Part shown: positions 9,928 to 55,463 of the stretch, piece by piece
How positions within the stretch are numbered: the first letter of the stretch is position 1
Layout of the letters: each line of letters opens with the position of its first letter
Origin: an uncultured Vicinamibacterales bacterium
GTDB lineage: Bacteria; Acidobacteriota; Vicinamibacteria; Vicinamibacterales; UBA8438
Length of the DNA stretch: 64,000 nt
Direction: 5' to 3'
NCBI GenBank assembly: GCA_958295905.1
Contig: OY282382.1
Coordinates: 2,876,001 to 2,940,000, forward strand
The notes under the pieces: generated by a model
Seen by the model: only the letters and a program-made list of their open reading frames with translations
What the model was told of the DNA's origin: nothing
Database searches by the model: none
Made by a program: the position numbers and the translations under genes

Positions 9928-10271
9928 TGCGCGACGGTTGAGGTAGTGCTGGACGGCGTCGGTGCTCGGATTCCATGACGTTCCGCACCTGCGGTCCGTG
10001 CGCGACGGTGAGGTAGCGCTGGGACGGCGTCGGGGCCGATGACGCAGGGATGCGGATGGGTGCACGTCAAGAAAGTGAGACGCCGGCGCTGGAGGCATCC
10101 GACGCCGCCGGCCCCGAGGCGCTCTATCGCGCCAAGGCCCGCAGGGGCCCGTTCGGAGGGCGTGGTCGAAGTCGTTCACGACGACCGTCCTCCACCTCTA
10201 TCGCGTCAAGGCCGCAGGGGCCCGTTCGGAGGGCCTCGAGGCCGCGAACGGGATCGAAATCGCCGATCTGA
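9928..10271. repeat. intergenic pair of short tandem duplications (periods 70 and 74 bp)
   Basis: The phrase gtgcgcgacggt(t)gaggtag occurs at 9928 and 9998. The phrase ctctatcgcg(c/t)caagg followed by gcaggggcccgttcggagg occurs at 10122 and 10196. The copies are diverged by single-base changes and indels. No gene is supported in 9830-10290, so this roughly 450-bp stretch is non-coding, duplicated DNA. Confidence 0.6.
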
Positions 10272-10299
10272 CCGTGACAGGGCAGTCGTCTCACAAATC

Positions 10300-10496
10300 T
10301 GACGTGCACCCGATGCGGATCGCCGGGTTGACGGCCGGCCCGCATCGGGTGCTTGGTCTTCGACCCGTCGAAGTTGGTGTGGTTGGCGATGAGCATGTCC
10401 GCGCCCGCCCGTTCGACGATCCCCCGGAACCGCGCGGCCGACTCGACATACTTTGTTCAGCCGCTCGCGGTTCGGATCGAAGTTGAACGCGGTGCC
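10300..10496 (-). pseudogene. C-terminal remnant of a metallo-beta-lactamase-fold hydrolase, frameshifted
   Basis: Reading leftward from 10496, one frame gives GGTAFNFDPNRERLNK. After a one-base shift near 10453, a second frame gives YVESAARFRGIVERAGADM and then LIANHTNFDGSKTKHPMR. The NHTNFDG segment matches the final metal-ligand histidine region of subclass B3-like metallo-hydrolases. Everything N-terminal is replaced by the repeat that begins at 10502, so the repeat sits exactly at the truncation. A remnant, not a working gene. Confidence 0.5.
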
Positions 10497-10501
10497 CCCC
10501 C

Positions 10502-10591
10502 GGGAGTCTGCGCCGTGGAACGGCGCGGACTCCCGGCTGGAGGGTTGGTTGGGCGGCAATCGGAGCCGCAGGCGACGATTTCCGGGACTCC
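10502..10591 (+). repeat. dispersed repeat module 2
   Basis: Starts gggagtctgcgccgtggaac, then cggcgcggactccc, then ggagggttggttgggcggca, ending gacgatttccgggactccca. The same order of words is found at 4362-4445 and, inverted, at 40282-40388. It lies between the truncated hydrolase and the cobalamin riboswitch. There is no coding capacity. Confidence 0.75.
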
Positions 10592-10624
10592 CAGGCGGCC
10601 GCCAATGGAGCGCGGCGGATGGGG

Positions 10625-10868
10625 TCGGGGTGCTATACTGCCGGGCGACTGCATTGCTCCCGATGATTCAGGGAAGTGGGTGAGAATCCCACACGGTCCC
10701 GCCACTGTATGCGGGGAGCGGGCGGCATACGGGCGTTGGTAGGCGCCGGTCACTGTGCTCGGCCGGAAGTTTGCGTCAGCGGAACTTCCCACGCGACCGC
10801 AGGTCGCGCCGGCACAGGAAGACTTTGCCGTTCGGCTTTGATCCGCGAGTCAGGAGACCGATCATCGG
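10625..10868 (+). promoter_or_regulatory. cobalamin (B12) riboswitch
   Basis: A TATACT -10 box at 10632 is followed by the conserved core: tcagggaagtgggtgagaat, then cccacacggtcccgccactg, and at the far side gatccgcgagtcaggagacc, the B12-box region. The order and spacing match adenosylcobalamin riboswitches, which turn off B12 uptake or synthesis genes when the cofactor is plentiful. The adenosyltransferase and btuFCD genes follow about 620 bp downstream, so they are the likely targets. A REP-like hairpin pair (10766-10814) sits inside the variable peripheral region. No clear terminator could be read. Confidence 0.85.
10766..10814. repeat. REP-like double hairpin inside the riboswitch
   Basis: The segment ggaagtttgcgtcagcggaa and then cttcccacgcgaccgcaggt, cgcgccggc matches 49405-49455 (tagaagtttcgcgtcagcga ... 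aacgcgaccgcaagatcgcg). Each copy can form two small stem-loops: gtttcgc/gcgaaac and gcgac/gtcgc. One copy is in the riboswitch periphery and the other between two convergent gene ends, a normal REP location. Confidence 0.5.
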
Positions 10869-11143
10869 GAGGTCGCGCAACCCCGCGGGCCGGCCTGCCG
10901 GTCCGTGAAGTTCGGCGCGTGGACACGCCGAGGGGAGGTTCCTGCCTGTCATGGCTCGTCGCCGTTGCGTGCCGCCCGCGTTCCGCCCGTCACGTGGCTG
11001 ACGAGTCGGGTAATCCCGCAAGCTCGTAGTCGAGAACTTCGTCGAGTGCGGTGGCCGCGCTCCGCGCGGGCTCCGCCTGCGCCTAGCCGGGCAGTCCGTG
11101 CGCCGCGGCCGGCGCAACGCGCCGGGTGCGGTGGAGCGCACTA
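10869..11143. other. spacer after the riboswitch, possible remnant start codon only
   Basis: Between the B12 box and the next repeat there is ggggaggttcctgcctgtca then tggctcgtcgccgttgc. That gives a good ribosome binding site and an ATG, but the frame stops after 16 codons. It may be the start of a lost riboswitch-controlled gene such as a TonB receptor; that is inference. I see nothing else coding. Confidence 0.3.
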
Positions 11144-11270
11144 GTGGTCCGTCACGTCATAAGTTGCGGACAGACGGACTTGGGTCGAACGACGTATTTC
11201 TTCTGCATAGGACTCTTGCGGTTCGAAGCGAGTACCCAGCGACCCCTGTTTTTAGTCGTGGCGATGCGCT
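11144..11270 (+). repeat. dispersed AT-richer repeat module 3
   Basis: Runs from agtggtccgtcacgtcataa to gtcgtggcgatgcgct. The inner words tcgaacgacgtatttcttct and gcataggactcttgcg match, inverted, the copy at 4450-4573, and more distantly 57298-57422. It is joined directly to the 113-bp inverted-repeat element that follows. It has no transposase. Confidence 0.75.
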
Positions 11271-11383
11271 GGGAGTCTGCGCCGCAGAACGGTTTTTGGG
11301 TCCGATCTGACACAATATTTAGCGGTCAATCGCCGGCGCTTGCGCAACATATGGTGGTCATAATTCCTGCGGCGCAGACTCCC
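11271..11383. mobile_element. 113-bp MITE-like element with 17-bp perfect terminal inverted repeats
   Basis: The left end GGGAGTCTGCGCCGCAG is the exact reverse complement of the right end CTGCGGCGCAGACTCCC. The interior is AT-richer (gacacaatatttagcggtca, atggtggtcataattcc). A second, nearly full copy is at 37991-38100, and solo ends occur at 8332-8352 and 40370-40388. Perfect inverted ends and a small non-coding body are what a miniature inverted-repeat transposable element shows. No parent transposase is in the window. Confidence 0.75.
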
Positions 11384-11488
11384 AGGTGCGGTGGACCACG
11401 CGATGCGCTTGCGCATCATACGCGGCCGAGCCGGCAGCGCGCTGGGGCGGCGAATCGGGGAAACCGATCGGCAGTGGAGGCAAGCGGC

Positions 11489-12064: not shown

Positions 12065-12068
12065 GCCC

Positions 12069-13064
12069 ATGAATCTGTCGCTGCGCCGCCTGCCGCGGGG
12101 ACGACTGCGGGCCCTGCTCGAGGTCGCGCTGTGCCTGGCCCTGGCGCTGGCCGCCTGGCGCTGGAGCGCCGACGCGCGCGCCGGCTGGACGTCCGCCGGA
12201 CCGACCGCGGCACCGCCGACGGCCGGGTTCCCGCGCACGGTGCGCGACTACGCCGGCGACGCGGTGCGGTTGCCGCGGCCGCCGTCGCGGATTGCGTCGC
12301 AGGCGCTGGTGACCGACCACTTTCTGTTCGCCGTGGTGCCCCCGTCACGCATTGCCGCGGTCAGCGCGGTCGCCCACGACCGGCGCTACAGCTACGTCGC
12401 GGAAATGGTGGACGACATGGACGTCGCGGTGGCCGGCGAGCCCGAGGCCCTCCTGCGGCGTCGTCCCGACCTGCTGCTGGCGTCGAATACCGCCCGCGCC
12501 GACTTCGTGGCGCTGGCGCGGGGCGCCGGCATCCCCACGTTCCGCCTGCTGACCGAGTTCGATGACTTCTCGGAGATCATCGGCGGTCTGGAGACCGTCG
12601 GCAGGCTCACCGGCGAGGAACCGGCGGCCGAGCGGGTGACGAGGCGGTTCCGCGAGCGGATTGCGGCGGCGGTGGCGCGCCGGCCGGCCGCGGCGCCGCC
12701 GCCGCGCGTGCTCGTGTACGTCGGTTTCTCGGGCACCCTCGGCGCCGGCTCGCTCTTCGATCACATTCTGACCGAGCTGGGCGCCGTGAACATCGCGGCC
12801 GAGGAGGGCATCGGCCCGCACGGCGCGATCGGCGGCGAGCAGATTGCGGCCTGGGATCCCGACTGGATCATCGCCGATGCCCCCGCCGGTGAAGAGGCGG
12901 CGGTGCGCCGGCGCCTCCTCGACCAGCCGGCGGTGGCGGTGACGGCCGCCGGCCGGACCGGGCAGGTCCTCGTCATCGACCACCGGCGCTTCATTACGAT
13001 GTCGCAGTACGCCGCCGGGCTGACCGAAACGGTGGCCGCCGCGCTGTATCCGGACGCGCCGTGA
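12069..13064 (+). CDS. btuF: vitamin B12 ABC transporter, substrate-binding protein
   Basis: A 331-residue type III periplasmic binding protein with an N-terminal signal/anchor (ALLEVALCLALALAAWRW). The BtuF/FhuD fold shows in the opening VRLPRPPSRIASQALVTDHFLF, EALLRRRPDLLLASNT, EFDDFSEIIGGLETVGRLTG, GAGSLFDHILTELGAVNIA, and the C-terminal DHRRFITMSQYAAGLTETV. It captures corrinoids for BtuCD. It starts four bases after the adenosyltransferase stop. The end of the gene is duplicated in tandem (108 bp), and btuC starts inside or just after that copy. Confidence 0.9.
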   Translation: MNLSLRRLPRGRLRALLEVALCLALALAAWRWSADARAGWTSAGPTAAPPTAGFPRTVRDYAGDAVRLPRPPSRIASQALVTDHFLFAVVPPSRIAAVSAVAHDRRYSYVAEMVDDMDVAVAGEPEALLRRRPDLLLASNTARADFVALARGAGIPTFRLLTEFDDFSEIIGGLETVGRLTGEEPAAERVTRRFRERIAAAVARRPAAAPPPRVLVYVGFSGTLGAGSLFDHILTELGAVNIAAEEGIGPHGAIGGEQIAAWDPDWIIADAPAGEEAAVRRRLLDQPAVAVTAAGRTGQVLVIDHRRFITMSQYAAGLTETVAAALYPDAP

Positions 13065-13174
13065 CCGACACCGGTTCCCGCCATCGACCACCGGCGCTTC
13101 ATCACGACGTCGCAGTACGCCGCCGGGCTGACCGAAGCGGTGGCCGCCGCGCTGTATCCGGGCGCGCCGTGACC
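12974..13174 (+). repeat. tandem duplication of the btuF tail, period 108 bp
   Basis: The words catcgaccaccggcgcttca, tcgcagtacgccgccgggct and gcgctgtatccggacgcgcc occur at 12974 and again from 13082, differing at a few positions (acgatgtcg versus acgacgtcg, cgaaacg versus cgaagcg). Both copies end gcgccgtgacc, so each offers a GTGA where a btuF stop and a btuC start overlap. The second copy lies between the present btuF stop and the probable true btuC start at 13169. Confidence 0.85.
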
Positions 13175-14239
13175 GGCGCCGGACGCCGGCCGGGCGTTCT
13201 CGGCGCCGCGTGGGTCGGCCTGCCGCTGCTGGCCATCCTGCTCGCGGCGGCGGTGGTGGCGGCGATCTCGATCGGCAGCACCGGCATCGCTTGGGGCACG
13301 GTGGTCCGCGTGCTCGGGGCGCGGGCGCTGCCCCACGGCTGGATCGACCTGCGGGACGTCTCCGAGGCCGAGCAGGTCATCATCTGGCTTATTCGCCTGC
13401 CGCGCGTGGTCGTCGCGGCGTTGGTCGGGGCCGCCCTCGCGGTGGCCGGGACGCAGATGCAGGGGCTCTTCCGCAATCCCCTGGCCGAGCCCAGCGTCAT
13501 CGGCATCAGCCAGGGCGCGGCCCTCGGCGCCGTCGCCGCGTTCGTCAGCGGGCTGGCCGCCGCGGCGGTCTTCTGGCTCCCGCTGTTCGCTTTCGCCGGC
13601 GCGCTGGCCGCGCTCGTCACCGTCTACACCATCGCCACCAGCGCCGGGCGCACCCCCGTCGCGACGCTGCTGCTGGCGGGCATCGCGCTCGGGTCGCTGG
13701 CGACCGCCATCGCCACCCTGCTGATTTCCATGAGCGTCGTCAACTGGCAGGTCGCCAACGAGGTCGTCTTCTGGCTGATGGGCGGGCTCGACAACCGGAC
13801 CTGGGCCCACGTCTGGATTTGCCTGCCGCCGGTCGCGGTGGGCGCGGTTGCGGCGCGCTGGCATACCCGGGATCTGGATCTGCTGCTCCTCGGCGAAGAG
13901 ACCGCGGCCAGCCTCGGCGTCGACGTGGAACGGGTGCGGCGGACGATACTGGCGACTGCGGCCCTGCTGACCGGCGCGGCGGTGGCGGTGAGCGGCGTCA
14001 TCGGCTTCGTCGGGCTGATTGTGCCGCACATGCTGCGGCTGGCGCTCGGGCCGTCGAACCGCATCCTGCTTCCGGCGGCCATGCTCGGCGGCGCGTTCTT
14101 TCTGGTCGTCTGCGACCTGCTGGCCCGCACCATCCACCCGCCCACGGAGATCCGGCTCGGCATCATCACGGCCGCCTGCGGCGCGCCGTTCTTCCTCTAT
14201 CTGCTGCGCCGGCAACGGGGAGGGTTCGGCGCACTATGA
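13169..14239 (+). CDS. btuC: vitamin B12 ABC transporter, permease
   Basis: A FecCD/BtuC-family permease, about 356 residues, with roughly ten membrane helices. Family motifs include RLPRVVVAALVGAALAVAGTQMQGLFRNPLAEPSVIGISQGAALGA split across the second and third helices, GEETAASLGVDVERVR, and SGVIGFVGLIVPHMLRLALG. I choose the GTG at 13169 because residues upstream of it merely translate the duplicated btuF tail out of frame. The GTG at 13061 is the alternative and would add 36 nonsense residues. Its stop overlaps the btuD start (ATGA). Confidence 0.9.
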   Translation: MTGAGRRPGVLGAAWVGLPLLAILLAAAVVAAISIGSTGIAWGTVVRVLGARALPHGWIDLRDVSEAEQVIIWLIRLPRVVVAALVGAALAVAGTQMQGLFRNPLAEPSVIGISQGAALGAVAAFVSGLAAAAVFWLPLFAFAGALAALVTVYTIATSAGRTPVATLLLAGIALGSLATAIATLLISMSVVNWQVANEVVFWLMGGLDNRTWAHVWICLPPVAVGAVAARWHTRDLDLLLLGEETAASLGVDVERVRRTILATAALLTGAAVAVSGVIGFVGLIVPHMLRLALGPSNRILLPAAMLGGAFFLVVCDLLARTIHPPTEIRLGIITAACGAPFFLYLLRRQRGGFGAL

Positions 14240-15015
14240 GCTTGCGCCTCGAGCAGGCCAGCCTCCGGATCGGCGCCCGGCATCTCGTGCGCGACGTCAC
14301 GATCGAGGTCCTCCCGGCCCGGATCACCGCGCTCATCGGTCCGAACGGGGCGGGGAAGTCGACGGCGCTGCGCCTCCTGGCGGGCCTCTGGAGCCCGACC
14401 GGCGGCCGCGCCAGCCTCGACGGGACCGGCTTGTCGCGGCTTCCGCGCCGGCTGCTCGCGCGGCGGATCAGCTTCGTGCCGCAGGAGACGCGCATCGATG
14501 TTCCGTTCACGGTGCAGGAGCTCGTGATGATGGGGCGCCATCCCCACCTCGGCCGGTTCGACGCTCCGGGCCCGGCGGACGCCGCGGCCGTCGCCGCGGC
14601 GATGTCGCGCGCGGACGTCGCGCATCTGACCGACCGCCCGGTCACCGAGCTGTCGGGCGGCGAGCGGCGGCGGGCGGTGATCGCGCGCAGTCTCGCCACC
14701 GGCTCGCACGTGATTCTGCTCGACGAGCCGACCGCCAACCTCGACGTCGACCACGTGATCGAGACCCTGACGCTGCTGCGGGAACTGGCCGCGGGCGGCG
14801 CGACGATAGCCCTCGCGCTGCACGACCTCAACATCGTCGCCCGCTGGGCGGACGCGGTCGGGGTGCTGGACGGCGGGCGCCTGCAGGCGGTCGGCCCCCC
14901 CGGGGCGGTGCTCGACGACGACCTCGTGGCGTCGGTGTTCGGCGTGCAGGTGGAGCGGCTCACCGCCCGCGACGGCCGCTCCACGCTCGTGTTCCACCGC
15001 CGGCGGGCGGGTTGA
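14236..15015 (+). CDS. btuD: vitamin B12 ABC transporter, ATP-binding protein
   Basis: A 259-residue ABC ATPase with Walker A GPNGAGKST, Q-loop FVPQET, signature LSGGERRRAVIARSL, Walker B VILLDEPTANLD and H-loop LALHDLNIVARW. This architecture is that of FecE/BtuD importers, which power BtuC. It overlaps btuC by four bases (ATGA) and ends the operon. Beyond it lies about 420 bp without a gene. Located at the cytoplasmic membrane face. Confidence 0.93.
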   Translation: MSLRLEQASLRIGARHLVRDVTIEVLPARITALIGPNGAGKSTALRLLAGLWSPTGGRASLDGTGLSRLPRRLLARRISFVPQETRIDVPFTVQELVMMGRHPHLGRFDAPGPADAAAVAAAMSRADVAHLTDRPVTELSGGERRRAVIARSLATGSHVILLDEPTANLDVDHVIETLTLLRELAAGGATIALALHDLNIVARWADAVGVLDGGRLQAVGPPGAVLDDDLVASVFGVQVERLTARDGRSTLVFHRRRAG

Positions 15016-17271: not shown

Positions 17272-17366
17272 TTTCTCTGGCTCCTTCGCCCGGGAGCCCG
17301 TCGCGCTGCGGGCGGCCCGGGGAGATCACGAACGGCCGTACGGCGGCGCCGGCTCCCGACGCCGGG

Positions 17367-18759: not shown

Positions 18760-19560
18760 ATGCAGAGACGGCTGTTCTTCGGTTTGCTGCCCGCGCTGGC
18801 GACGTCGCTCGCGGCCTGTGCGCCGGCCGCCGCCGGGGCGGAGGAGACGCGGACGGTCGCGGTGGTGACGTCGGGCGGTCTGGCCGCGGCCTATGATGCG
18901 CTCGCCCCGCGGTTTCAGGAGCAGACGGGGATCCGGCTGGTCACGGCGTACGGGGCGTCGACCGGCGGGGCTCCCGACTCGATTCCGGTCCGGCTGGAAC
19001 GGGGTGAACGCTTCGACGTCCTGATCATGTCGCAGGCCGGCCTGGAGGCGCTGACCGCCGCGGGGCTGGTGCGGGCGGACACGCGGGTGGACCTGGCCAC
19101 CTCGTCGATCGGGATGGCGGTGCGCGAAGGAGCGCCCCTGCCGGACATCAGCACGCCCGACGCGTTCGTGGAGACGTTGCTGGCCGCCGAGTCCATCGGG
19201 TACTCGGCGAGCGTGAGCGGGACGTACGTGTCGTCGGAGCTGTTTCCCGGGCTCGGCCTCGCCGAAGAGCTCGCGCCGAAGAGCCGGCGCATCGTCAGCG
19301 AACGCGTAGCGGCGGTGGTCGCGCGGGGCGAGGTCGGGATCGGCTTTCAGCAGGTCAGCGAGATACTCTCGATCGAGGGGGCCGCCTATGCCGGCCCCAT
19401 TCCCGACGAGTATCAGCGGGTGACGACGTTCTCGGCCGCGATCGCGGCCGATGCCGAGAATGACGCCGGCGCTCAGAGGCTGTTGGACTTCCTGGCGTCC
19501 GCCGAGGCGGCCGGGACGATTCGCGGGACGGGTCTGGAGCCGACGTCGGGCGTGAACTGA
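18760..19560 (+). CDS. ModA-like periplasmic substrate-binding protein
   Basis: A 266-residue exported protein: MQRRLFFGLLPALATSLAAC gives a lipoprotein-like signal (LAAC). The mature domain has the type II binding-protein layout of ModA/extracellular solute-binding proteins: TVAVVTSGGLAAAYDALAPRFQEQTG, AYGASTGGAPDSIPVRLERGE, RFDVLIMSQAGLEAL, IGMAVREGAP, and VARGEVGIGFQQVSEI. The ligand could be molybdate or another oxyanion; no permease or ATPase accompanies it, so the role is open. I start at the ATG at 18760, since the longer frame upstream has no signal sequence. Its 3' end is duplicated downstream. Confidence 0.75.
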   Translation: MQRRLFFGLLPALATSLAACAPAAAGAEETRTVAVVTSGGLAAAYDALAPRFQEQTGIRLVTAYGASTGGAPDSIPVRLERGERFDVLIMSQAGLEALTAAGLVRADTRVDLATSSIGMAVREGAPLPDISTPDAFVETLLAAESIGYSASVSGTYVSSELFPGLGLAEELAPKSRRIVSERVAAVVARGEVGIGFQQVSEILSIEGAAYAGPIPDEYQRVTTFSAAIAADAENDAGAQRLLDFLASAEAAGTIRGTGLEPTSGVN

Positions 19561-19740
19561 GCGGCCGGAAGCGCCGGCGGAATCCGGGCCGGCGACGACT
19601 GTCCGCGGGAGGGTGATCATGGTCGACGGCGTCTTGCGGTGTTCTTCTCGGCGCTGGTCCTGCCGATGTCGGGCGTGAACTGAGCGGCCGGAAGCGCCGG
19701 CGGAATCCGGGCCGGCGACGACTGTCCGCGGGGGGTGATC
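19546..19740 (+). repeat. tandem duplication spanning the binding-protein end and the next gene start, period 124 bp
   Basis: The run tcgggcgtgaactgagcggc ... gcgacgactgtccgcggg ... gtgatcatggt ... cgtcttgcggtgttcttctc begins at 19546 and again at 19670. The first copy therefore contains a second, defective start of the D-aminoacylase gene (a T is missing after atggt), and the second copy contains a stray stop of the binding-protein gene. Confidence 0.85.
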
Positions 19741-21336: not shown

Positions 21337-21428
21337 CGCCGCCTCTGAACGGGACCTCGTCGTCGACGGCGGCGAGCACACCGGGGCGCGTCCGGGGCGC
21401 GTGCTCTACGGCCCGGGCCGGCGCCGAC
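21255..21428 (+). repeat. tandem duplication of the D-aminoacylase tail, period 92 bp
   Basis: gaacgggaccctcgtcgtcg to gctctacggcccgggccggc occurs at 21255 within the gene and at 21347 after its stop. The second copy has lost one C (gggacctcg), so it cannot extend the frame. It lies in the spacer before the asparaginase. Confidence 0.85.
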
Positions 21429-21650
21429 GTTGCGTCCCATCGCCGCCGGTGCCGGGCGGGCGGTCCGCGCCGGTGGCGGGTCATGCCGTCGATCTTGCCT
21501 TCGGGCGGCCCGGCCATCAAGATGTCACGATGACACGCGACACGCCACGTCCCGCGGATACGCGCGGTGTCCTCGGTCTCTCGGGAGCGCGCCGACGAGA
21601 TCGACCCGTGCACCCCACCGCGGCTCCGGCTCACGCCTGCCGGGGTCGGG

Positions 21651-21758
21651 GGCTCATGCCTGTCGTTGCCGCCGTGGCCGCGCTGTTCCGAGGCGGCGGG
21701 TCGGGTGGGGCACGCGCGGCGTGGCTCATGCCTGCCGTTGCCGCCGTGGCCGCGCTCT
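21651..21758 (+). repeat. 72-bp tandem duplication at the asparaginase start
   Basis: ggctcatgcctgtcgttgcc gccgtggccgcgctgt at 21651 recurs at 21723 as ggctcatgcctgccgttgcc. The period of 72 is a multiple of three, so both ATGs (21656 and 21728) are in the asparaginase frame and the choice of start is ambiguous. Confidence 0.8.
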
Positions 21759-37702: not shown

Positions 37703-37816
37703 AGGTGCGACGCCTCGCTGGGAATCTCCGGCGGATTCGGCACCCGGTGTCGAGGTCGAGCCCGGTCATGATGTTCTGGGTGCGATGCCTCGCTGGGAAT
37801 CTCCGGCGGATTCGGG
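37703..37816. repeat. 76-bp tandem duplication in a gene-free spacer
   Basis: ggtgcgacgcctcgctggga atctccggcggattcgg at 37703 recurs at 37779 with one base changed (gatgcc). The region 37564-37990 has no supported gene. Confidence 0.7.
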
Positions 37817-46035: not shown

Positions 46036-46391
46036 TGGTGGAGGCGGCGGGAGTCGAACCCGCGTCCGAGAATACGTCCCCACAGGACTCTACATGCGTA
46101 TCCGCGCCTGTTGTTTCGCCACCCGTGTGAGAGCGCGGCCAAAACCGCGGGCGGCTGAGCGTCGGAAAATCTCGCTACGACCCGTCGTCGCCCCGGGTCG
46201 GAGCCAGCCTGCTGAATGACGTTCCGTCGCGCCCCGCAGGCGAAGGCGAGGGGAACGTCGCCGCTTGATTAGGCGGCGAGAGCGAGCTGCGTATCGTTCG
46301 CAGTTATGGTGTTTTCCATCGGATTAACGAGTCGATGGTGCTCGGCATGCATCCCGTGTTCGCCTATCCCCGTCGAAGCCGTGTCGCCCCC
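46036..46391 (-). ncRNA. ssrA: tmRNA (transfer-messenger RNA)
   Basis: Read leftward, the 5' end GGGGGCGACACGGCTTCGAC and the 3' end CGCGGGTTCGACTCCCGCCG CCTCCACCA form the tRNA-like half: GGGGGCG pairs with CGCCTCC and CCA is encoded. The tag frame reads ANDTQLALAA and stop TAA at 46269, so ribosomes stalled on broken mRNAs would be tagged ANDTQLALAA, possibly preceded by the resume alanine. Pseudoknot-like inverted segments follow the tag. The length is about 356 bases, typical of one-piece tmRNA. Confidence 0.95.
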
Positions 46392-47928: not shown

Positions 47929-49113
47929 GTGACGACGACCACCGGCTCGCGCAAGGCGGCCCGGTTCACCGAGTCGGTGATCCGCGAGATGACCCGGCTG
48001 GCCCACCGGCACGGGGCGGTGAACCTGTCTCAGGGGTTCCCCGACTTCGCCGCGCCGGCCGCATTGAAGGCGGCGGCGCAGGCTGCGATAGGCGCCGACA
48101 TCAACCAGTACGCGGTGACGTGGGGCGCGAAGCCGCTGCGCGAGGCGGTGGCGCGCGACTTCACGCGCCGGCACGGCGTCGCGGTCGACCCCGAGGCCCA
48201 GGTGACGGTGTGCTGCGGGTCGACCGAGGCGATGATGTCGACGATGCTGGCGACGGTCGACCCCGGCGACGAGGTGGTCGTGTTCGAGCCGTTCTACGAG
48301 AACTACGGTCCCGACGCGATTCTGTCGGGAGCGGCGCCGCGCTACGTAACGCTGCGGGCGCCGGACTGGACGTTCGATCCGGATGCCCTGGCCGCCGCGT
48401 TCAACGCCCGGACGCGGGCCGTCATCATCAACACGCCCAACAATCCGACCGGCAAGGTCTTCGCCCGCGACGAGCTGGAGACGATTGCCGAGCTGTGCCG
48501 CCGGTGGGACGTCCTCGCTGTCACCGACGAGATCTACGAGCACATCCTCTACGACGGCGCCCGGCACGTTCCGATGGCGGCCATCGATGGGATGGCGGAC
48601 CGCACCGTCACGATCAACAGCCTGTCCAAGACCTACAGCGTGACCGGGTGGCGGGTGGGGTGGGCCATCGCTTCGCCGCAGCTCACGGGGGCGATCCGGA
48701 AGGTGCACGATTTTCTGACGGTGGGCGCGGCGGCGCCGCTGCAGGAGGCGGGGGCGGCGGCCCTCGCGCTGCCCGACGCCTACTACGCGGAGCTGGCGGC
48801 GGGGTACCGGCGGCGGCGCGACGTGCTGCTCGATCTGCTCGAGCCGCGCGGATTCAGATGCTTCAAGCCGCGCGGGGCCTACTACATCATGACCGACGTC
48901 AGCGGGTTCGGATTCGCCGACGACCTCGAGTTCGCACGCTACCTGGTGGCCGACGTGGGGGTCGCGGTGGTCCCCGGCAGCAGCTTCTATCACGACCCGG
49001 TCCTGGGCCGCACGCAGGTCCGCTTCACCTTCTGCAAGCGCGACGAGACGCTGCAGGCGGCGGGACGCCGTCTCGCCGCGATACCCGTCCCCGCCGGGTC
49101 GTCGGCGCCGTAG
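47929..49113 (+). CDS. class I/II aminotransferase (kynurenine/methionine aminotransferase-like)
   Basis: 394 residues. MTRLAHRHGAVNLSQGFPDF is the hallmark of the YbdL/kynurenine-oxoglutarate transaminase branch. Further motifs are INQYAVTWGAKPLREAVARD, NTPNNPTGKVF, TDEIYEHILYDG, the PLP lysine in NSLSKTYSVTGWRVGW (about K234) and VRFTFCKRDETL with the carboxylate-binding Arg. It probably uses methionine, glutamine or aromatic amino acids. The GTG start is placed by a TATAAT box six bases upstream. The 3' end is followed by two degenerate copies of its own tail. Confidence 0.88.
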   Translation: MTTTTGSRKAARFTESVIREMTRLAHRHGAVNLSQGFPDFAAPAALKAAAQAAIGADINQYAVTWGAKPLREAVARDFTRRHGVAVDPEAQVTVCCGSTEAMMSTMLATVDPGDEVVVFEPFYENYGPDAILSGAAPRYVTLRAPDWTFDPDALAAAFNARTRAVIINTPNNPTGKVFARDELETIAELCRRWDVLAVTDEIYEHILYDGARHVPMAAIDGMADRTVTINSLSKTYSVTGWRVGWAIASPQLTGAIRKVHDFLTVGAAAPLQEAGAAALALPDAYYAELAAGYRRRRDVLLDLLEPRGFRCFKPRGAYYIMTDVSGFGFADDLEFARYLVADVGVAVVPGSSFYHDPVLGRTQVRFTFCKRDETLQAAGRRLAAIPVPAGSSAP

Positions 49114-49380
49114 TGGCCGGCGTGGGGGTCGCGGTGGTCCCCGGCGGCAGCTTCTATCACGACCCGGTCCTGGGCCGCACGCAGGTCCGCTTCACCTTAA
49201 CTGCAAGCGCGACGAGACGCTGCAGGCGGCGGGACGCCGTCTCGCCGCGATACCCGTCCCCGCCGGGTCGTCGGCGCCGTAGTGGCCGGCGTGGGGGTCG
49301 CGGTGGTCCCCGGCGGCAGCTTCTATCACGACCCGGTCCTGGGCCGCACGCAGGTCCGCCTCACCTTACTGCAAGCGGGG
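48947..49380 (+). repeat. aminotransferase tail repeated three times, period about 168 bp
   Basis: tggccgacgtgggggtcgcg to gtcgtcggcgccgtag occurs in the gene from 48947, again from 49114 and partly from 49283. Copies two and three share changes (ggcggc for ggcagc, gccggc for gccgac) and carry indels (cttaactgcaag, cttactgcaag) that destroy the frame. The last copy stops after ttactgcaagcg. Confidence 0.9.
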
Positions 49381-49404
49381 ACGGCACGCGAAGAGCTTGC
49401 CCCG

Positions 49405-49455
49405 TAGAAGTTTCGCGTCAGCGAAACGTCCAACGCGACCGCAAGATCGCGCCAG
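49405..49455. repeat. REP-like double hairpin between convergent genes
   Basis: tagaagtttcgcgtcagcga aacgtccaacgcgaccgcaa gatcgcgccagc matches 10766-10814. GTTTCGC/GCGAAAC is a clean stem. It ends one base before the stop of the outer membrane protein gene. Confidence 0.5.
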
Positions 49456-50391
49456 CTAGAATCGCAGCAGGGCGCCCACGTACACGCCTTCGAGCTTCAG
49501 GTCGACGTCGTGATCCGCGGTTTCCAGGTGCAGGCGCCGGGACCGGTAGCCGAGCTGCAGCCCGAACGCGTCGACGAAGTTCAGCACCGCATGCACATCG
49601 TAGGCGAGATGTTCGCCGGTATAGCCGAGGATTTTGCCGATCCCGGGCGGCGTCCGGAGGAGGCTCGCCTCGGCCCCCAGCATGATCACCGGTGACGGGT
49701 ACAGCCGCACCACCCCGCCGACGCCGGGGACGGGCCGGCGCAGGCGCGCCAACTCGCAGGCGGGGGCCGCGGCGTCGCACCCGGGGCCCGGCGCGCCGTC
49801 CTGCGCGACCCGGACGTCGGTATAACCGGCCTCGGCGAAGAGACCCAGCGAGCCGCGGGCCAAGTGGAGGACGTCGTACTCGTAGGCCAGCCGCCAAGTC
49901 TTCCACGTGAGGGTCGAGGCGACGGCGCCCCCGGGTTCGACCCCGGTGTCTCCGGGGGGCGGCCGGTCGTCGAGGGCGGTGTCGGCGGCGTAGCGGATCG
50001 GCAGATAGTCGAGATGAACCCGCTGCCGGCGGCTCAGTCGCAGCCGCACCCGCCCGTCGATGAACCGCGGCGCGGAAGCGCCCGGGTCGCCGGCCGGGCT
50101 GGTGGTGGCGCCGGACCCGCCCGACCCGCGGCCCTCGACGGTCAGATCCTGCGCCGGCGACCACAGCGAGGCCAGAAACTCGATGCGGTACTGCTCGCCG
50201 ACCGGGAAGTCCGCCGGGGTGGGTGATAGCTGGGCCGCCGCGGGATGGGCGCAGGTCAGCAGGCCGATCAGCAGGCATCCCCGGACGGCGGCGCAGGGAA
50301 GCGACGAGAGGGCCGCGGCGCGCGGGCGACCGGGGCAGGATCTCCGGTCGGACCGAGGCCGGCGGTCGAATGCAGCGGGGTCTTGTGTCAC
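49456..50391 (-). CDS. outer membrane beta-barrel protein of unknown function
   Basis: About 311 residues. After a basic head, AVRGCLLIGLLTCAHPAAAQ is a signal peptide. The mature part alternates hydrophobic and polar residues in strands (YRIEFLASLWSP, RVRLRLSRRQRVHLDYLPIR, GLFAEAGYTDVRVAQ, EHLAYDVHAVLNFVDAFGLQ) and ends in a strand finishing with Phe (YVGALLRF), the usual outer-membrane assembly signal. I see no family name. The start is uncertain: the N-terminal region is a tandem duplication (VTQDPAAFDRRP twice, 75 bp). I use GTG at 50391; ATG 50466 is the upstream copy. Confidence 0.65.
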   Translation of the reverse strand: MTQDPAAFDRRPRSDRRSCPGRPRAAALSSLPCAAVRGCLLIGLLTCAHPAAAQLSPTPADFPVGEQYRIEFLASLWSPAQDLTVEGRGSGGSGATTSPAGDPGASAPRFIDGRVRLRLSRRQRVHLDYLPIRYAADTALDDRPPPGDTGVEPGGAVASTLTWKTWRLAYEYDVLHLARGSLGLFAEAGYTDVRVAQDGAPGPGCDAAAPACELARLRRPVPGVGGVVRLYPSPVIMLGAEASLLRTPPGIGKILGYTGEHLAYDVHAVLNFVDAFGLQLGYRSRRLHLETADHDVDLKLEGVYVGALLRF

Positions 50392-51010
50392 CCCGACCAC
50401 CGAGCAACTGGCGGCGGACGGCCACGCGGGAGGCCGGCGGTCGAATGCAGCGGGGTCTTGTGTCACGGGCTATCTGCCGCAACCGGGGGCGTCGCGGGCG
50501 CCGGCGGCCCCGACGATCCAGTCCAGCTATGACTGAGTGTCCGCCCACGCCGCAACCGGGGGCGTCACGGGTGTCGGCGGCCCCGCATCGGCGCGAGATC
50601 GTTTCACGGGGTTTATCGACACTTCCCATTCCCGGCTGCAGTCCGTCTGGGCGATTCCTCGGGCGTCGCCGGCCGGTGAATCCCCAACGGCCGCCGCTAC
50701 CCGCCCCGCAATCAGTTGTTTGGGCGATGCCCCGGGCGTCCCCGGCCGGCGAGCCCGCGCGGGGCGCATCCGGCGAACCGGGCGGACGCACCCACCGCCG
50801 GGCGCCAGCCTGCCACCCGCCGAGCCCGCGCGGGGCGCATCCAGCGGACCGGGCGGACGCGCCGCCCGGGCGACGGTTGCCCCCTCGCTCGGGAGGGCCG
50901 CGCGGGGTGCGTCCGGCGGACCGGGCGATGCGCTGGCGGCGGGGCCGTCGCGTGGGCTCGTCCCCCGGAAGCCGGCGTGGGGCGTCCCCGGGCGTCCCGG
51001 CCGGTGAACC
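50356..51010. repeat. degenerate tandem repeat region before the ABC exporter
   Basis: aggccggcggtcgaatgcag cggggtcttgtgtcac occurs at 50356 and 50431 (75 bp). gccgcaaccgggggcgtc occurs near 50478 and 50549. The phrase agcccgcgcggggcgcatcc ... gcgaaccgggcggacgc recurs at 50751 and 50822, and in worn form near 50898. gggcgt(c)cccggccgg(c/t)ga appears four times. Periods are about 70-76 bp. No gene is supported in 50530-51160, which is about 75-80 percent G+C by eye. Confidence 0.7.
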
Positions 51011-51164
51011 CGCGCGGCGCGGCTCGGGCGGGTCCGGGGGAGCGCCGCCGCCGGGGCCGCGGCGGGGCCCGGCCGCGGAAGCTGGTATCCTGGAAGCCGC
51101 GACCCCGGCGGCGTCCCGCCGCTTGCCGCGGGTCGCCCGGTCTGCGTACGGCTCTCCGTTTCCC

Positions 51165-53042
51165 ATGTCTCCTCTCGCACGACTCGTTCCCTTTGTCCTG
51201 CGGTATCGACGGCGGTTCCTGCTCGGTCTGCTGTGCCTGGTGCTCACCACCGCGTTCTCGCTGCTCGGGCCGTGGGTGCTCCGCTTCGCCGTGGACGACC
51301 TGACGGCGGGCGTGACCCGGGACAAGCTCGCCCGGCATGCGGCCGCGTTGCTCGGTCTCGCGGTGGCCGGCGGGGGGTTCCGGTTCCTCATGCGCCGGAT
51401 TCTCGTCGGCGCGTCGCGCGCCATCGAGTACGACCTGCGCAACGCCTTCGTCGCCCACGTGCAACGGCTGCCGCTGGCGTACTTCCACGCCACCCGCACC
51501 GGCGACCTGATGTCCCGCGCCACGAACGACCTGAACGCGGTGCGGATGATGGTCGGTCCCGCCATCATGTACATGGCCAACACCGGCATGGTGTTCGTCG
51601 TCTCGGTCGCCCTGATGTTGTCCATCGACCCCGTCCTGACGCTGGCCGCGCTGGCGTGCCTGCCGCTGGTCTCGTTGGTCGTGAAGTTCTTCGGGAGCGC
51701 GGTGTACCGCCACACGGAGCAGATTCAGGCCCAGTTGTCGACGCTGAGCACGGTGGTGCAGGAGGGGCTGGCCGGCGTGCGGGTGGTGCGCGCGTACTGC
51801 CGCGAGGGTGCCGAAACGGAACGGTTCCGGCGCGAGAACCAGGAGTACTTCGTCCGCAACGCGCGGCTCATCCGGGTCCAGGCGCTGTTCTATCCGAGCC
51901 TGGGTTTCATTCTGGGGCTGGCCGGGGTGCTGGTGCTCTGGCTCGGCGCGCGGCACGTCATCGAGGGGCGGATCACGGTGGGGCAGTTCGTCGCTTTCAA
52001 CGCCTATCTGCTCATGTTGAGCTGGCCGATGATTGCGTTCGGGTTCGTGACCAATCTGTTTCAGCGGGGGATGGCGGCCTGGCGTCGGATGTGCGACGTC
52101 CTCGACGCGCCCCCGGCCGAGCCCGACCCCGTGGCCGCCGCCGCGACGCCGGGGTCAGGAGCCCGCGGTGAGATCGCGCAGGGCGCCGAGAGCGATCGCG
52201 GGCGGTGGGACCCTGGTTGCGGGTTCCCCGGCGGCATCGAGTTCCGCGGCCTGTCGTTCGCCTACAACGGCAGGCCGGTGCTGCGGGAGGTGTCCGCCCG
52301 CGTCGAGCCCGGCCGGGTGCTCGGGGTCATCGGCCCCACGGGTTCGGGCAAGTCGACGCTCCTCGCCCTGCTGCCGCGGTTGTTCAACCCCCCGCGGGGG
52401 ACCGTCTTCATCGACGGCGTCGACGTGCTGGACCTGCCGCTGCCGGTGCTGCGCCGGCAGATCGCCATGGTGCCGCAGGATCCGTTCCTGTTCTCGGACA
52501 CCATCGCCGGTAACGTGTCGTTCGGGGTCGAAGCGGCCGGCGCACCCGGCGCCGGCGACCCGCACGCCGGTGCGCTCGATGCCGGCGCACCCGATGCGGC
52601 GCGGGACGCCGGGGCGGTGGTGGCCGGCGCGCTGGCCCTGGCGCGGCTCGACACGGATATCGCGGGGTTTCCCGACGGCGCGGAGACGCGGGTCGGCGAG
52701 CGCGGCGTCACCCTGTCGGGCGGGCAGAAGCAGCGGACGGCGCTGGCGCGGGCGATCTCGGCCGATGCGCCGATCCTGCTCCTCGACGACGCCCTCTCGG
52801 CCATCGACGCCCGTACGGAAGCGGATATCCTGGCCGGGCTCCGCCGGGTCCTGCGCGGGCGCACATCCATCATCGTGTCGCACCGCATCTCGACGGTGCG
52901 GGCCGCCGACCTGATCCTCGTGCTTGATGAAGGACGCGTTGTCGAGCGCGGCGCTCACGACGAACTGGTGGCGCGCGACGGGCTGTACGCCGGGCTGCAT
53001 CGGAAGCAACTGATCGAGCAGGCGCTGGTGGAGCAGGGGTGA
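51165..53042 (+). CDS. ABC exporter half-transporter, MdlA/SmdA type
   Basis: 625 residues: a six-helix membrane domain (VPFVLRYRRRFLLGLLCLVL onward, with FHATRTGDLMSRATNDLNAV) and an ATPase domain with Walker A GPTGSGKST, signature LSGGQKQRTALARAIS, Walker B ILLLDDALSAIDA and H-loop ISTVRA preceded by VSHR. The residue after the Walker B Asp is Asp instead of catalytic Glu, as in MdlA-like subunits of heterodimeric exporters. A 28-residue Ala/Gly/Asp-rich insert (AGAPGAGDPHAGALDAGAPD) lies before the signature helix. It pairs with the downstream ATPase gene. The exported compound is unknown. Confidence 0.9.
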   Translation: MSPLARLVPFVLRYRRRFLLGLLCLVLTTAFSLLGPWVLRFAVDDLTAGVTRDKLARHAAALLGLAVAGGGFRFLMRRILVGASRAIEYDLRNAFVAHVQRLPLAYFHATRTGDLMSRATNDLNAVRMMVGPAIMYMANTGMVFVVSVALMLSIDPVLTLAALACLPLVSLVVKFFGSAVYRHTEQIQAQLSTLSTVVQEGLAGVRVVRAYCREGAETERFRRENQEYFVRNARLIRVQALFYPSLGFILGLAGVLVLWLGARHVIEGRITVGQFVAFNAYLLMLSWPMIAFGFVTNLFQRGMAAWRRMCDVLDAPPAEPDPVAAAATPGSGARGEIAQGAESDRGRWDPGCGFPGGIEFRGLSFAYNGRPVLREVSARVEPGRVLGVIGPTGSGKSTLLALLPRLFNPPRGTVFIDGVDVLDLPLPVLRRQIAMVPQDPFLFSDTIAGNVSFGVEAAGAPGAGDPHAGALDAGAPDAARDAGAVVAGALALARLDTDIAGFPDGAETRVGERGVTLSGGQKQRTALARAISADAPILLLDDALSAIDARTEADILAGLRRVLRGRTSIIVSHRISTVRAADLILVLDEGRVVERGAHDELVARDGLYAGLHRKQLIEQALVEQG

Positions 53043-53372
53043 TGCCGTCGGACGGTCAAGTTGTCGGCAGGGCCTGCGACGCCCCGGCTGATGCGCCGGC
53101 GGCTTTGCAACGGAAGCAACTGATCGAGCAGGCGCTGGTGGAGCAGGGGGTGGTGCCGTCGGACGGCGAGGTTGTCGGCGGGGCCTGCGGCGCCCGGCTG
53201 ATGCGCCGGCGGCTTTGCAACGGAAGCAACTGATCGAGCAGGCGCTGGTGGGAGCAGGGGTGATGCCGTCGGACGGCGAGGTTGTCGGCGGGGCCTGCGG
53301 CGCCCGGCTGATGCGCCGGCGGCTTTGCAACGGAAGCAACTGATCGAGCAGGCGCTGGTGGAGCAGGGGGTG
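53001..53372 (+). repeat. four copies of the junction between the two exporter genes, period exactly 110 bp
   Basis: cggaagcaactgatcgagca ggcgctggtggagcagggg starts at 53001, 53111, 53221 and 53331. Each unit holds the last 13 codons of the first gene, its stop, and the first 20 or so codons of the second gene. Copies differ by indels in the g run (gagcaggggtgatg, gagcagggggtggtg, ggagcaggggtgatg, gagcagggggtgatgg). Since 110 is not a multiple of three, the inner copies are read in changing frames. Only the outermost junctions are functional. Confidence 0.95.
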
Positions 53373-55463
53373 ATGGAGTCGGACGACGAGGTTGTCGGCA
53401 AGGCCTACGACGCCCGGCTGATGCGCCGGCTGCTGGGCTACATGCAGCCCTATCGCGGCCGTATCGGACTGGCGTTCTTCTCGATTCTGGGACTCTCGAT
53501 CCTGCAGCTGGCGCCGCCGTACCTGACCAAGGTGGCGATCGACACCCATATCGCGGCGGGTGACGTGGAGGGCCTGACCCGGTTGGCCCTGCTGCTGCTC
53601 GGAGTCCTGGTGCTGTCCTATCTGTTCGAGGCGGTGCAGACCCATGCGCTGCAGGTCACCGGCCAACGCATCATCTTCGACCTGCGGATGCAGATTCATG
53701 GGCATCTGCAGCGTCTCGACGTGGCGTTCTTCGATCGCAACCCGGTCGGCCGCCTCATGACCCGGGTGACGACCGACGTCGACGCCCTGAACGACCTGTT
53801 CGCGTCCGGCGTCGTGTCCGTCTTCCGTGACGTCTTCATGCTGACGGGCATCGCGATCGTGCTGTTCGTCATGGACTGGCGCCTCGCGATCGTCGCCCTC
53901 TCGGTGCTGCCCCTGATCGCGGCGGTGACGCAGTGGTTCCGCCGCCACGCCCGGCAGTCGTACCGTGAAGTGCGGGGCTGGATAGCCCGCATCAACGCCT
54001 TCCTGCAGGAGAACGTCACCGGGATGGCGACCGTGCAGTTGTTCCGGCGCGAGGCGCGGCAGTACGAACGGTTCGACGACATCAACCGGGCGTGCCGGGA
54101 CGCGCACCTCGCATCCATCTTTTTCTACGCGGTGTTCTATCCCGCCGTCGAGGTGCTGGGGGCGCTGGCCGTGGCCTCGATCATCTGGTTCGGCGGCGCG
54201 TGGACGCTCCAGGGCAGCCTCGAGCTCGGGTCCCTGGTGGCGTTCGTGCTGTACTCGCAGCGCTTCTTCCGCCCGATCAGCGATTTGTCCGAGAAGTTCA
54301 ACGTCCTGCAGGCGGCGATGGCGTCGTCCGAGCGGATCTTCGGGTTGCTCGACACCCCGGTGGCGGTCGCCGACCCCGCCGCGCCGGCCGCCGCGGTGCG
54401 GGAGCGCCTGCGGGATGACCGGAGAGATCACGGCGGTGCGGTCGCGGACCCTGCGCCCCCGGCCGCCGCGGCGCGGAGGCGGCTGCGGCATGGCGAGACA
54501 GATCACGGCACGCCGGTCGCAGACTCCGCCGTTTCGGCCGCCGCGGTGCGGGAGCGCCTGCGGAATGACGACCGCGATCACGGCGATCCGGTTACCGCCA
54601 GCCCCGCGCCGGCCCCTGCGCGGCGGGAGCGCCTGCGGGATGACGACCGCGATCACGGCGATCGGGTCATCGCCCCCTTCGCCCCGGCCGCCACGGCGCG
54701 GGGAGGCGGCCACATCCGGTTCGAGCACGTCTGGTTCGCGTATCGCGGCGACCAGTACGTGCTTGAGGACGTGACCTTCGACGTCGCGCCCGGCCGGCGC
54801 GTCGGCGTGGTCGGCGCCACCGGGGCGGGGAAGAGCACCGTGCTCAACCTGCTGATGCGGTTCTACGACGTCAGCCGCGGGCGCATCACCATCGACGGCG
54901 TCGACATCCGCGACCTGCCGCTCCACGACCTGCGCTCCCGGTTCGGTCTCGTGCTGCAGGACGTCTATCTGTTCTCCGGCACCGTGGCCGACAACATCCG
55001 TCTCGGCAACGAGGCGATCACCGACGACGAGGTGCGCCGGGCGGCGCGGGGCGTGCACGCCGACCGGTTCATCGCGTCACTCTCCGACGGGCTCGGGACC
55101 GCGGTCGCCGAGCGGGGGGCCACCTTCTCGGTGGGGCAGCGCCAACTGCTGTCGTTCGCGCGCGCCCTCGCCTCCCGGTCGCCGGTGCTGCTGCTCGACG
55201 AGGCCACGTCGAGTGTGGACACCGACACCGAGCGGCTCATCCAGGACGCGCTGCACGTGCTCATGTCCGGCCGCACCACCATCGCCATCGCCCACCGGCT
55301 GTCGACGGTGCAGGACATGGACACGATCCTCGTCTTCCACAAGGGCCGGCTGCGCGAGCACGGCAGCCACCGGCAGTTGCTCGCCGGGCGGGGCCTGTAC
55401 TACAAGCTCTACCAGCTGCAGTATCGAGACCAGGAGGTCGGGATGGCTCCCGTGGTGCCGTAG
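53373..55463 (+). CDS. ABC exporter half-transporter, MdlB/SmdB type
   Basis: 696 residues from ATG 53373. The membrane domain begins RLLGYMQPYRGRIGLAFFSI and includes FDRNPVGRLMTRVTTDVDAL. The ATPase has Walker A GATGAGKST, Q-loop LVLQDVYLFSGT, signature FSVGQRQLLSFARAL, Walker B VLLLDEATSSVD and H-loop AHRLSTV, a complete catalytic site complementing the degenerate one of its partner. Between the domains, residues of about 335-435 are four in-frame copies of a 25-residue unit (75 bp), an acquired linker extension. It follows the first exporter gene after the duplicated junction. Confidence 0.92.
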   Translation: MESDDEVVGKAYDARLMRRLLGYMQPYRGRIGLAFFSILGLSILQLAPPYLTKVAIDTHIAAGDVEGLTRLALLLLGVLVLSYLFEAVQTHALQVTGQRIIFDLRMQIHGHLQRLDVAFFDRNPVGRLMTRVTTDVDALNDLFASGVVSVFRDVFMLTGIAIVLFVMDWRLAIVALSVLPLIAAVTQWFRRHARQSYREVRGWIARINAFLQENVTGMATVQLFRREARQYERFDDINRACRDAHLASIFFYAVFYPAVEVLGALAVASIIWFGGAWTLQGSLELGSLVAFVLYSQRFFRPISDLSEKFNVLQAAMASSERIFGLLDTPVAVADPAAPAAAVRERLRDDRRDHGGAVADPAPPAAAARRRLRHGETDHGTPVADSAVSAAAVRERLRNDDRDHGDPVTASPAPAPARRERLRDDDRDHGDRVIAPFAPAATARGGGHIRFEHVWFAYRGDQYVLEDVTFDVAPGRRVGVVGATGAGKSTVLNLLMRFYDVSRGRITIDGVDIRDLPLHDLRSRFGLVLQDVYLFSGTVADNIRLGNEAITDDEVRRAARGVHADRFIASLSDGLGTAVAERGATFSVGQRQLLSFARALASRSPVLLLDEATSSVDTDTERLIQDALHVLMSGRTTIAIAHRLSTVQDMDTILVFHKGRLREHGSHRQLLAGRGLYYKLYQLQYRDQEVGMAPVVP
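54366..54700 (+). repeat. 75-bp in-frame tandem repeat in the linker of the second exporter protein
   Basis: Landmarks gtcgccgacc, gtcgcggacc, gtcgcagac, gttaccgcc and gtcatcgcc occur at 54366, 54441, 54516, 54591 and 54666, a spacing of exactly 75. Each unit encodes about 25 residues of the form VADPAPPAAAVRERLRDDRRDHG. All copies keep the frame, unlike the intergenic duplications. Confidence 0.9.

What the first reader, a model, noticed from the sequence alone, without database searches (positions are those of the whole stretch)
9928..54700. Many unrelated loci share short tandem duplications with a period near 75 bp
Independent sequences are duplicated head to tail with similar spacing: 70 bp (9928/9998), 74 (10122/10196), 72 (21651/21723), 76 (37703/37779), 75 (40725/40800), 75 (50356/50431), about 71 and 76 (50751/50822/50898) and 75 four times (54366-54666). 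Longer periods of 92, 108, 110, 124, 142, 168 and 182 bp occur at other gene junctions. The duplicated words differ from place to place, so this is a process acting on any sequence, not a repeat family. Inside genes the period keeps the frame (72, 75, 75); in spacers it need not. A preferred length near seven helical turns hints at a mechanism such as fork reversal, a nucleoid-protein footprint or a specific slippage intermediate.
Basis: seen in the sequence. Interest (0 to 1): 0.72.

Follow-up and report, generated by a model that had tools for sequence, protein, structure and literature searches.

The report
Off-target CRISPR spacer insertions genome-wide
The odd 75-base repeats in this bacterium are very probably scars where its own CRISPR memory-making enzymes pasted short pieces of DNA into the chromosome outside the CRISPR array, apparently many times over, which would make an immune system a source of mutations.

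Summary
In 2.46 Mb of sampled chromosome, direct repeats of 33-42 bp at a spacing of 69-77 bp occur 87 times, against 11 and 8 in the adjacent 9-bp classes. They are not tandem duplications. Nearly all are a ~36-bp repeat, an unrelated ~37-bp spacer and the same repeat again; the repeat differs from locus to locus. Both lengths match the type I-G (36 bp) and I-C (37 bp) CRISPR arrays of the same genome. Relatives at five clean sites have one repeat and no spacer. In six of 103 loci of a dispersed element the same 36 bp are doubled around six different spacers. Best explanation: off-target spacer integration by Cas1-Cas2; roughly 200 scars per genome by extrapolation. The longer periods (91-182 bp) are true tandem duplications without a preferred length. 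Off-target integration itself is known (E. coli; a few natural cases, recalled); I found no report of this scale in a natural genome. No phage protospacer was found, and which Cas1 is responsible is not proven.

The parts
9928..9964 (.). site A, repeat copy 1 (older, with indels)
9965..9998 (.). site A, spacer (34 bp)
9999..10035 (.). site A, repeat copy 2
10122..10161 (.). site B, repeat copy 1 (1-bp indel against copy 2)
10162..10195 (.). site B, spacer (34 bp)
10196..10234 (.). site B, repeat copy 2
21651..21684 (.). site C, repeat copy 1; in frame, doubles the hydrophobic core of a signal-peptide-like stretch before the asparaginase domain (reading by eye)
21685..21722 (.). site C, spacer (38 bp)
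21723..21756 (.). site C, repeat copy 2
37704..37740 (.). site D, repeat copy 1
37741..37778 (.). site D, spacer (38 bp)
37779..37815 (.). site D, repeat copy 2
50355..50391 (.). site E, repeat copy 1 (identical copies)
50392..50429 (.). site E, spacer (38 bp)
50430..50466 (.). site E, repeat copy 2
50513..50548 (.). site F, spacer (36 bp)
50549..50585 (.). site F, repeat copy 2
50750..50789 (.). site G, repeat copy 1
50790..50820 (.). site G, spacer 1 (31 bp)
50821..50860 (.). site G, repeat copy 2
50861..50932 (.). site G, possible second spacer and a diverged third repeat copy; boundaries approximate

Best explanation
The ~73-bp pairs are scars of off-target spacer integration. A Cas1-Cas2 complex of one of the genome's own CRISPR-Cas systems attacks the two strands of a chromosomal target about 36 bp apart, preferring G+C-rich DNA, joins a ~37-bp prespacer, and gap repair copies the 36 bp on both sides. 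The result is repeat-spacer-repeat (net gain about 73 bp), as in a normal array but with the local sequence as the 'repeat'. Shown: the geometry, the match to the genome's own array dimensions, ancestral empty sites at some loci, independent events at one exact 36-bp target, open cas1 frames with Cas2-like frames beside two of them. Inferred: that Cas1-Cas2 is the enzyme, that most spacers are of foreign origin, and that type I-G (36-bp repeat) is the main culprit (about 55%); type I-C (37 bp) may contribute. Sites are depleted in coding sequence, and those inside it tend to keep the frame.
For: Peak of 87 pairs at offset 69-77 with repeat 33-42 against 3-11 in the nearest classes. Spacer lengths at 88 scattered sites have their mode at 36-38, like arrays A1 (mode 38) and A2 (mode 36); mean offset 73.2, sd 1.7, against 73.8 in both arrays. 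Three CRISPR-Cas loci: I-G (Cas4-Cas1 fusion, Cas3g, Cas8g; repeat 36), I-C (Cas1c, Cas4c; repeat 37, 175 repeats in view), I-D (repeat 28); Cas2-like ORFs lie beside the first two cas1 genes (recognised by eye). Empty sites: of 20 coding-context sites searched in two congeners, 7 span the junction in the 'one repeat, no spacer' model; five are clean in print: L121_5599, L134_5418, L035_15713, L126_15220 and L070_19160. L074_16498 also has one copy in G001. Dispersed element: 121 core matches at 103 loci; six loci have the same 36 bp doubled around six unrelated spacers of 35, 39, 38, 36, 40 and 38 bp (one copy has a 1-bp indel, some have substitutions). No obvious shared insert ends in 25 identical pairs. 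For 80 of 88 spacers no match within 2 kb at E 0.001; of the 8 matches four are only 14-22 bp. Coding depletion: 23 of 86 sites (27%) against 80% of 4000 random positions. 2 of 88 spacers have a full-length match with one mismatch elsewhere in the sampled genome.
Against: No phage or plasmid protospacer was found; only 3 valid exact-match scans of viral contigs were made, all empty. Only 1 of the 2 self-protospacers has TTC beside it. No sequence motif at the targets beyond controls, whereas off-target sites in E. coli resemble the CRISPR locus (recalled). I-G is not singled out: identical pairs peak at 37 bp (11 of 32) rather than 36 (6 of 32), and offsets differ slightly from both arrays (Mann-Whitney P 0.04 and 0.02). 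No clear peak for the 28-bp repeat of I-D. At least 5 of the 88 sites are better read as tandem or coding repeats (L058_2406, L112_15709, L113_5440, L126_118, window 54548). G001 has a cas1 gene yet only 1 pair in 126 kb. At L126_15220 the other congener, G002, has a tandem copy of about 72 bp over the same place (from coordinates). No neo spacer matches an array spacer over its length. Of 20 sites tested in relatives, 13 were undetermined.
Confidence: 0.86

Rival explanations
1. Short tandem duplications with a preferred length near 75 bp (slippage, fork reversal or a protein footprint), half of the unit having diverged.
For: True tandem duplications are common in this genome, and at least 5 of the 88 sites look like such.
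Against: The repeat halves are identical in 32 of 88 while the spacer is not repeated. Tandem periods show no peak near 75. Clean empty sites lack the spacer altogether.
Confidence: 0.04
2. Insertion of filler DNA during end joining of staggered breaks, with fill-in making the flanking repeats.
For: Can make repeat-insert-repeat in principle (general knowledge, no call).
Against: It would not be expected to give two narrow length distributions like those of the genome's CRISPR arrays, nor the same 36 bp six times.
Confidence: 0.04
3. A tiny transposon or another Cas1-like integrase (casposase-like), not the CRISPR adaptation machinery.
For: Long target duplications with a fixed length are integrase-like.
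Against: No obvious common insert ends in 25 identical pairs; the three cas1 genes found by Pfam all lie in CRISPR-Cas loci; insert lengths match array spacers. Other integrase families were not searched for.
Confidence: 0.05
4. Remnants of old, decayed CRISPR arrays scattered by rearrangement.
For: Four pairs lie within 0.9 kb beside array A1; one repeat, L058_9015, resembles the I-G repeat.
Against: Repeats differ from locus to locus; several sites lie in or at the ends of genes with a single copy and no spacer in relatives.
Confidence: 0.01

Closest known systems
Non-canonical (off-target) spacer integration / neo-CRISPR loci, Nivala, Shipman and Church 2018 (paper not held; known from passages in PMC9456107, PMC11788318 and PMC11687729, and from recall of the abstract)
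   Same: Spacers integrated into the chromosome outside CRISPR arrays by Cas1-Cas2.
   Different: There: Cas1-Cas2 overexpression in E. coli (so cited in PMC11788318) and, recalled, a few putative natural cases at sites resembling the array. Here: some 80 scars in 40% of one natural genome, no general motif, frame mostly kept in coding-like sequence, one element hit six times at the same 36 bp.
Ectopic spacer acquisition in Streptococcus thermophilus arrays (PMC7999890; title and start of abstract seen in the search listing)
   Same: Spacer acquisition at a non-standard place.
   Different: Within the CRISPR array, while this is outside any array.
Type V-C Cas1 off-target integration (mentioned in PMC13034035; passage seen)
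   Same: Frequent integration outside the CRISPR locus.
   Different: A system without Cas2; the passage does not speak of scars in a natural genome.

Membership tests
Cas1-Cas2 off-target spacer integration (neo-CRISPR) | Target-site duplication as long as a CRISPR repeat of the genome | tested here: met
   36 or 37 bp in 17 of 32 identical pairs (range 33-40); 36 at the six element loci; array repeats 36 and 37
Cas1-Cas2 off-target spacer integration (neo-CRISPR) | Insert as long as the array spacers | tested here: met
   modes 36-38 against 38 (A1) and 36 (A2)
Cas1-Cas2 off-target spacer integration (neo-CRISPR) | Ancestral empty site with one copy and no spacer | tested here: met
   7 of 20 sites span, 5 clean in print; 13 of 20 undetermined
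Cas1-Cas2 off-target spacer integration (neo-CRISPR) | Spacer derived from a protospacer with the system's PAM | tested here: inconclusive
   2 of 88 with a full-length self match, one beside TTC; three viral scans empty
Cas1-Cas2 off-target spacer integration (neo-CRISPR) | cas1 and cas2 in the genome | tested here: met
   3 cas1; two Cas2-like ORFs (by eye)
Cas1-Cas2 off-target spacer integration (neo-CRISPR) | Not defining, reported for E. coli (recalled): target resembles the leader-repeat junction | tested here: not met
   no motif above controls
Cas1-Cas2 off-target spacer integration (neo-CRISPR) | Dependence on active Cas1 | not testable with these tools
   needs an experiment
Functional CRISPR array | One shared repeat with several spacers | tested here: not met
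   repeats differ between loci; three possible two-spacer chains in the sample and perhaps site G of the window
Tandem duplication | Unit length equals period | tested here: not met
   repeat 33-42 in a period of 69-78; about 5 of 88 excepted

The most novel reading that the evidence does not exclude
CRISPR adaptation in this lineage works as a standing, genome-wide insertional mutagen: it has added some 200 to 300 spacers of ~37 bp with 36-bp target duplications across the chromosome, lengthening intergenic regions and adding 24-25 residues in frame to proteins, so that the genome holds a second, scattered record of past DNA encounters.
Probability: 0.6. Interest if true: 0.92.

Novelty: new variant of a known kind. 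Interest (0 to 1): 0.84.

Why it matters
Off-target integration is discussed as a danger to genome integrity that Cas1-Cas2 may guard against (passage of PMC8390005). A genome full of such scars would show that CRISPR immunity carries a lasting mutational cost, give many natural target sites from which to learn Cas1-Cas2 specificity, offer raw material for new arrays and for protein change, and suggest that some 'single-spacer CRISPRs' are real events. It is directly testable: the scar length should follow the repeat length of each genome's own CRISPR system.

Tried and rejected
Motif search at targets with hidden orientation and shift gave scores no better than controls taken 200-600 bp away. 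Inverted repeats in the targets: no excess; only G+C is raised (0.757 against 0.706). Scars of the I-D type (28-bp repeat, offset 62-68): no clear peak. Neo against array spacers: short matches only, best 22 bp at 91%. A first attempt at empty sites in the window, L011 and L074 mostly failed because intergenic flanks do not align with the congeners. L115_16658 first looked shared with G001 by score, but the alignment shows no second repeat there, so it is not counted. L069_6114 passes the rule but its right flank does not align well, and L064_3323 is gappy. One search held 43 of 85 spacers and scored only 40 candidates per genome, so it missed a known self match (L042); only the L047 spacer was found elsewhere at full length. 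In 173 kb of loci from other genera (fetched for a transport gene or for cas1) all 143 pairs at 69-78 lay in ordinary arrays beside cas1 (judged by eye), so that sample shows no scars but is small. Searches of the held papers for natural off-target integration found no survey of this kind; most subscription papers are not held.
Full report
WHERE IT IS. The window is C1:2876001-2940000 of an unnamed 6.3-Mb genome in 3 contigs. Four of the five named records that match a window protein are Vicinamibacteria or Vicinamibacteraceae metagenome assemblies (75-87% protein identity). The habitat is not known to me. I sampled 120 stretches of 20 kb over contig C1 plus the window, 2.464 Mb, about 40% of the contig.

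THE OBSERVATION. Tandem Repeats Finder and a self-comparison show two classes in the window. Class 1: true head-to-tail duplications, 91 to 182 bp, 93-97% matches by the finder for the six named in the observation check. Class 2: a word of 34-40 bp that returns after 70-75 bp while the bases between the copies are not repeated. In the 2.464 Mb the offset histogram has one sharp peak at 71-75. With repeat length 33-42 and the type I-G array excluded, 87 pairs lie at 69-77; the classes beside it hold 11 and 8, then 3 and 3. Of isolated, simple gapped repeats, 129 lie at offsets 60-89 and at most 11 in any other 15-bp class. True tandem repeats have no peak: 39, 26, 21, 21, 20, 15, 8 for successive 20-bp classes from 20.

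ANATOMY. For 88 sites (offset 69-78, array excluded) the spacer is 31-44 bp with mode 36-38. Copies are identical in 32 of 88 and below 95% in 30 of 88, which suggests a process that went on for long. The repeat sequence differs from locus to locus, apart from dispersed elements. Sites are spread over the chromosome, 14 to 54 per Mb by eighths. On checking, at least 5 of the 88 are better read as tandem or coding repeats, because the spacer returns nearby or the place is a coding array: L058_2406, L112_15709, L113_5440, L126_118 and window 54548; I did not take them out of the counts. At 21651 the insertion keeps the frame and doubles the hydrophobic core of what looks by eye like the signal peptide of an asparaginase.

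THE GENOME'S OWN CRISPR SYSTEMS. The scan hit a real array: repeat GCTTCAATGAGGCCGCGGGGATTACCCCGCGGATGC, 36 bp, in L130 and L167. Pfam finds three cas1 genes. System A1: Cas4-Cas1 fusion, Cas3g and Cas8g, so type I-G, 86 spacers seen, offset 70-79. System A2: Cas1c and Cas4c, so type I-C, repeat 37 bp, 173 spacers seen (its left end lies outside the stretch), offset 71-78 but one. System A3: Cas10d, Cas3d, Cas5d, Cas6d and Cas7d, so type I-D, repeat 28 bp, offset 63-70 but three. Short frames beside the first two cas1 genes read as Cas2 by eye. Scattered pairs have mean offset 73.2 (sd 1.7), arrays A1 and A2 73.8 (sd 1.9 and 1.7); the small difference is nominally significant (P 0.04 and 0.02). 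No clear peak matches A3.

EMPTY SITES. I searched 20 of the 88 sites, chosen for coding-like flanks, in G001 and G002 with a query of left flank + one repeat + right flank. By the rule, 7 of 20 are spanned in that form in at least one relative: L035, L064, L069, L070, L121, L126 and L134. Printed alignments are clean for L121, L134, L035 and L126 and L070; L064 is gappy and L069 weak on the right. The other 13 align on one side only or not at all. At L126 the coordinates show that G002 has its own tandem copy of about 72 bp over that place. L074_16498 also has a single copy in G001. So at the clean sites the event added one repeat copy plus the spacer. A tandem duplication would not have brought in other letters.

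THE HOTSPOT. The core of a dispersed element matches 121 times, at 103 loci, in the sample. At six of these loci (L028, L047, L077, L086, L107, L123) the same 36 bp, GTCGCC...GCGTG, is doubled, with six spacers of 35, 39, 38, 36, 40 and 38 bp that share no match longer than 9 bp. One first copy has a 1-bp indel (L028) and some have substitutions. Spread of one insertion with the element would give one spacer; these look like six separate events at one position. The flanks in common fix the duplication at 36 bp, the length of the I-G repeat; but 11 of 32 identical pairs elsewhere measure 37, so I-C may take part.

TARGETS AND SPACERS. No sequence motif stands out over controls. Targets are richer in G+C (0.757 against 0.706, P about 1e-6). 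Only 23 of 86 sites lie in coding-like sequence against 80% of 4000 random positions; of these 15 of 23 keep the frame, against 25 of 63 elsewhere (one-sided Fisher P 0.03). Four pairs lie in 0.9 kb at what is probably the trailer end of array A1 (end judged from repeat orientation). Spacers: 2 of 88 match another place in the sampled genome over their whole length with one mismatch; 0 of 359 array spacers do outside arrays, one having a partial match of 29 of 36 bp at 90%. One of the two matches has TTC beside it, a PAM I recall for type I-C and of the TTN kind for I-G; the other has not. Three exact scans of viral contigs were empty. Within 2 kb, 8 of 88 spacers have a match at E 0.001; four of these are tandem cases named above and four are 14-22 bp. 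Spacer origin is thus mostly unknown.

RELATIVES. In 259 kb of G001 and G002, regions chosen as counterparts of the window and of sites here, 3 pairs were seen (1 and 2; one of them visibly low-complexity) where about 9 would be expected at the density found here; other offsets from 51 to 122 gave 9. G001 has a cas1 gene; in G002 none was found. The sample is too small to tie presence to cas1.

MECHANISM. An integrase that attacks the two strands ~36 bp apart and carries a ~37-bp substrate explains all of this, and Cas1-Cas2 pairs of that very geometry are in the genome. That Cas1-Cas2 can do this outside the array is cited for E. coli under overexpression (Nivala et al. 2018, in a passage of PMC11788318; the paper itself is not held). 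I recall from its abstract that a few natural cases were proposed. The step from geometry to enzyme is inference; no experiment was possible.

NUMBERS. 87 pairs in 2.464 Mb scale to about 220 in 6.3 Mb; background and the tandem cases would take off about a tenth, so about 200. Pairs at offset 69-78 with repeats of 20-32 bp (47 in the list) are probably in part decayed scars, so about 300 is possible. Both figures are extrapolations.

VERDICT. Real, strongly non-random, and best read as natural off-target spacer integration on a scale I have not found described in the papers searched. Filed as a new variant of a known kind. The claim rests on sequence geometry, empty sites and the hotspot; the missing pieces are phage protospacers, a link to one Cas1, and a survey of other genomes.

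Noticed in passing
window 58541-58912; 121 core matches at 103 loci in the sampled 2.46 Mb: A dispersed element of about 100 bp or more (GATTCGAGGGGTCGCCACCGTCTTGCCGACCGGCCGGCGCCGCGTGAGACCCACGATTC) is very common in this genome; part of it lies in the 182-bp tandem duplication of the window.
   Followed up: partly
window 12974-13182, 19539-19786, 21254-21429, 48946-49377, 52996-53434, 58541-58912: True tandem duplications, several at gene ends; those at 12974 and 21254 are single copy in the congeners compared, which have duplications of their own (for example at the place of 14196-14271).
   Followed up: partly
window 54364-54702: Degenerate 25-residue repeat, 4.5 copies, in the linker between the membrane and ATPase domains of an ABC transporter.
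   Followed up: no
L130:18069-18877: Four repeat-spacer-repeat pairs with different repeats crowd into 0.9 kb beside the type I-G array.
   Followed up: partly
C1:5238006-5244459, C1:3984001-3997008 (left end not seen), C1:4985136-4992176: Three CRISPR-Cas systems (I-G, I-C, I-D) with 88, 175 and 103 repeats in view in one genome.
   Followed up: partly
L167:9324-10547: A gene that reads like a transposase lies between the I-G array and its cas2/cas1 genes (named by eye).
   Followed up: no
window 46036-46391 (-), 10647-10880 (+), 61675-61867 (-): tmRNA, cobalamin riboswitch and 6S RNA by Rfam.
   Followed up: no
offsets 177-185 in the sampled genome: A second, smaller excess of gapped repeats (13 pairs with repeat 33-42) at 177-185 bp; listed only, partly pieces of dispersed elements.
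   Followed up: partly
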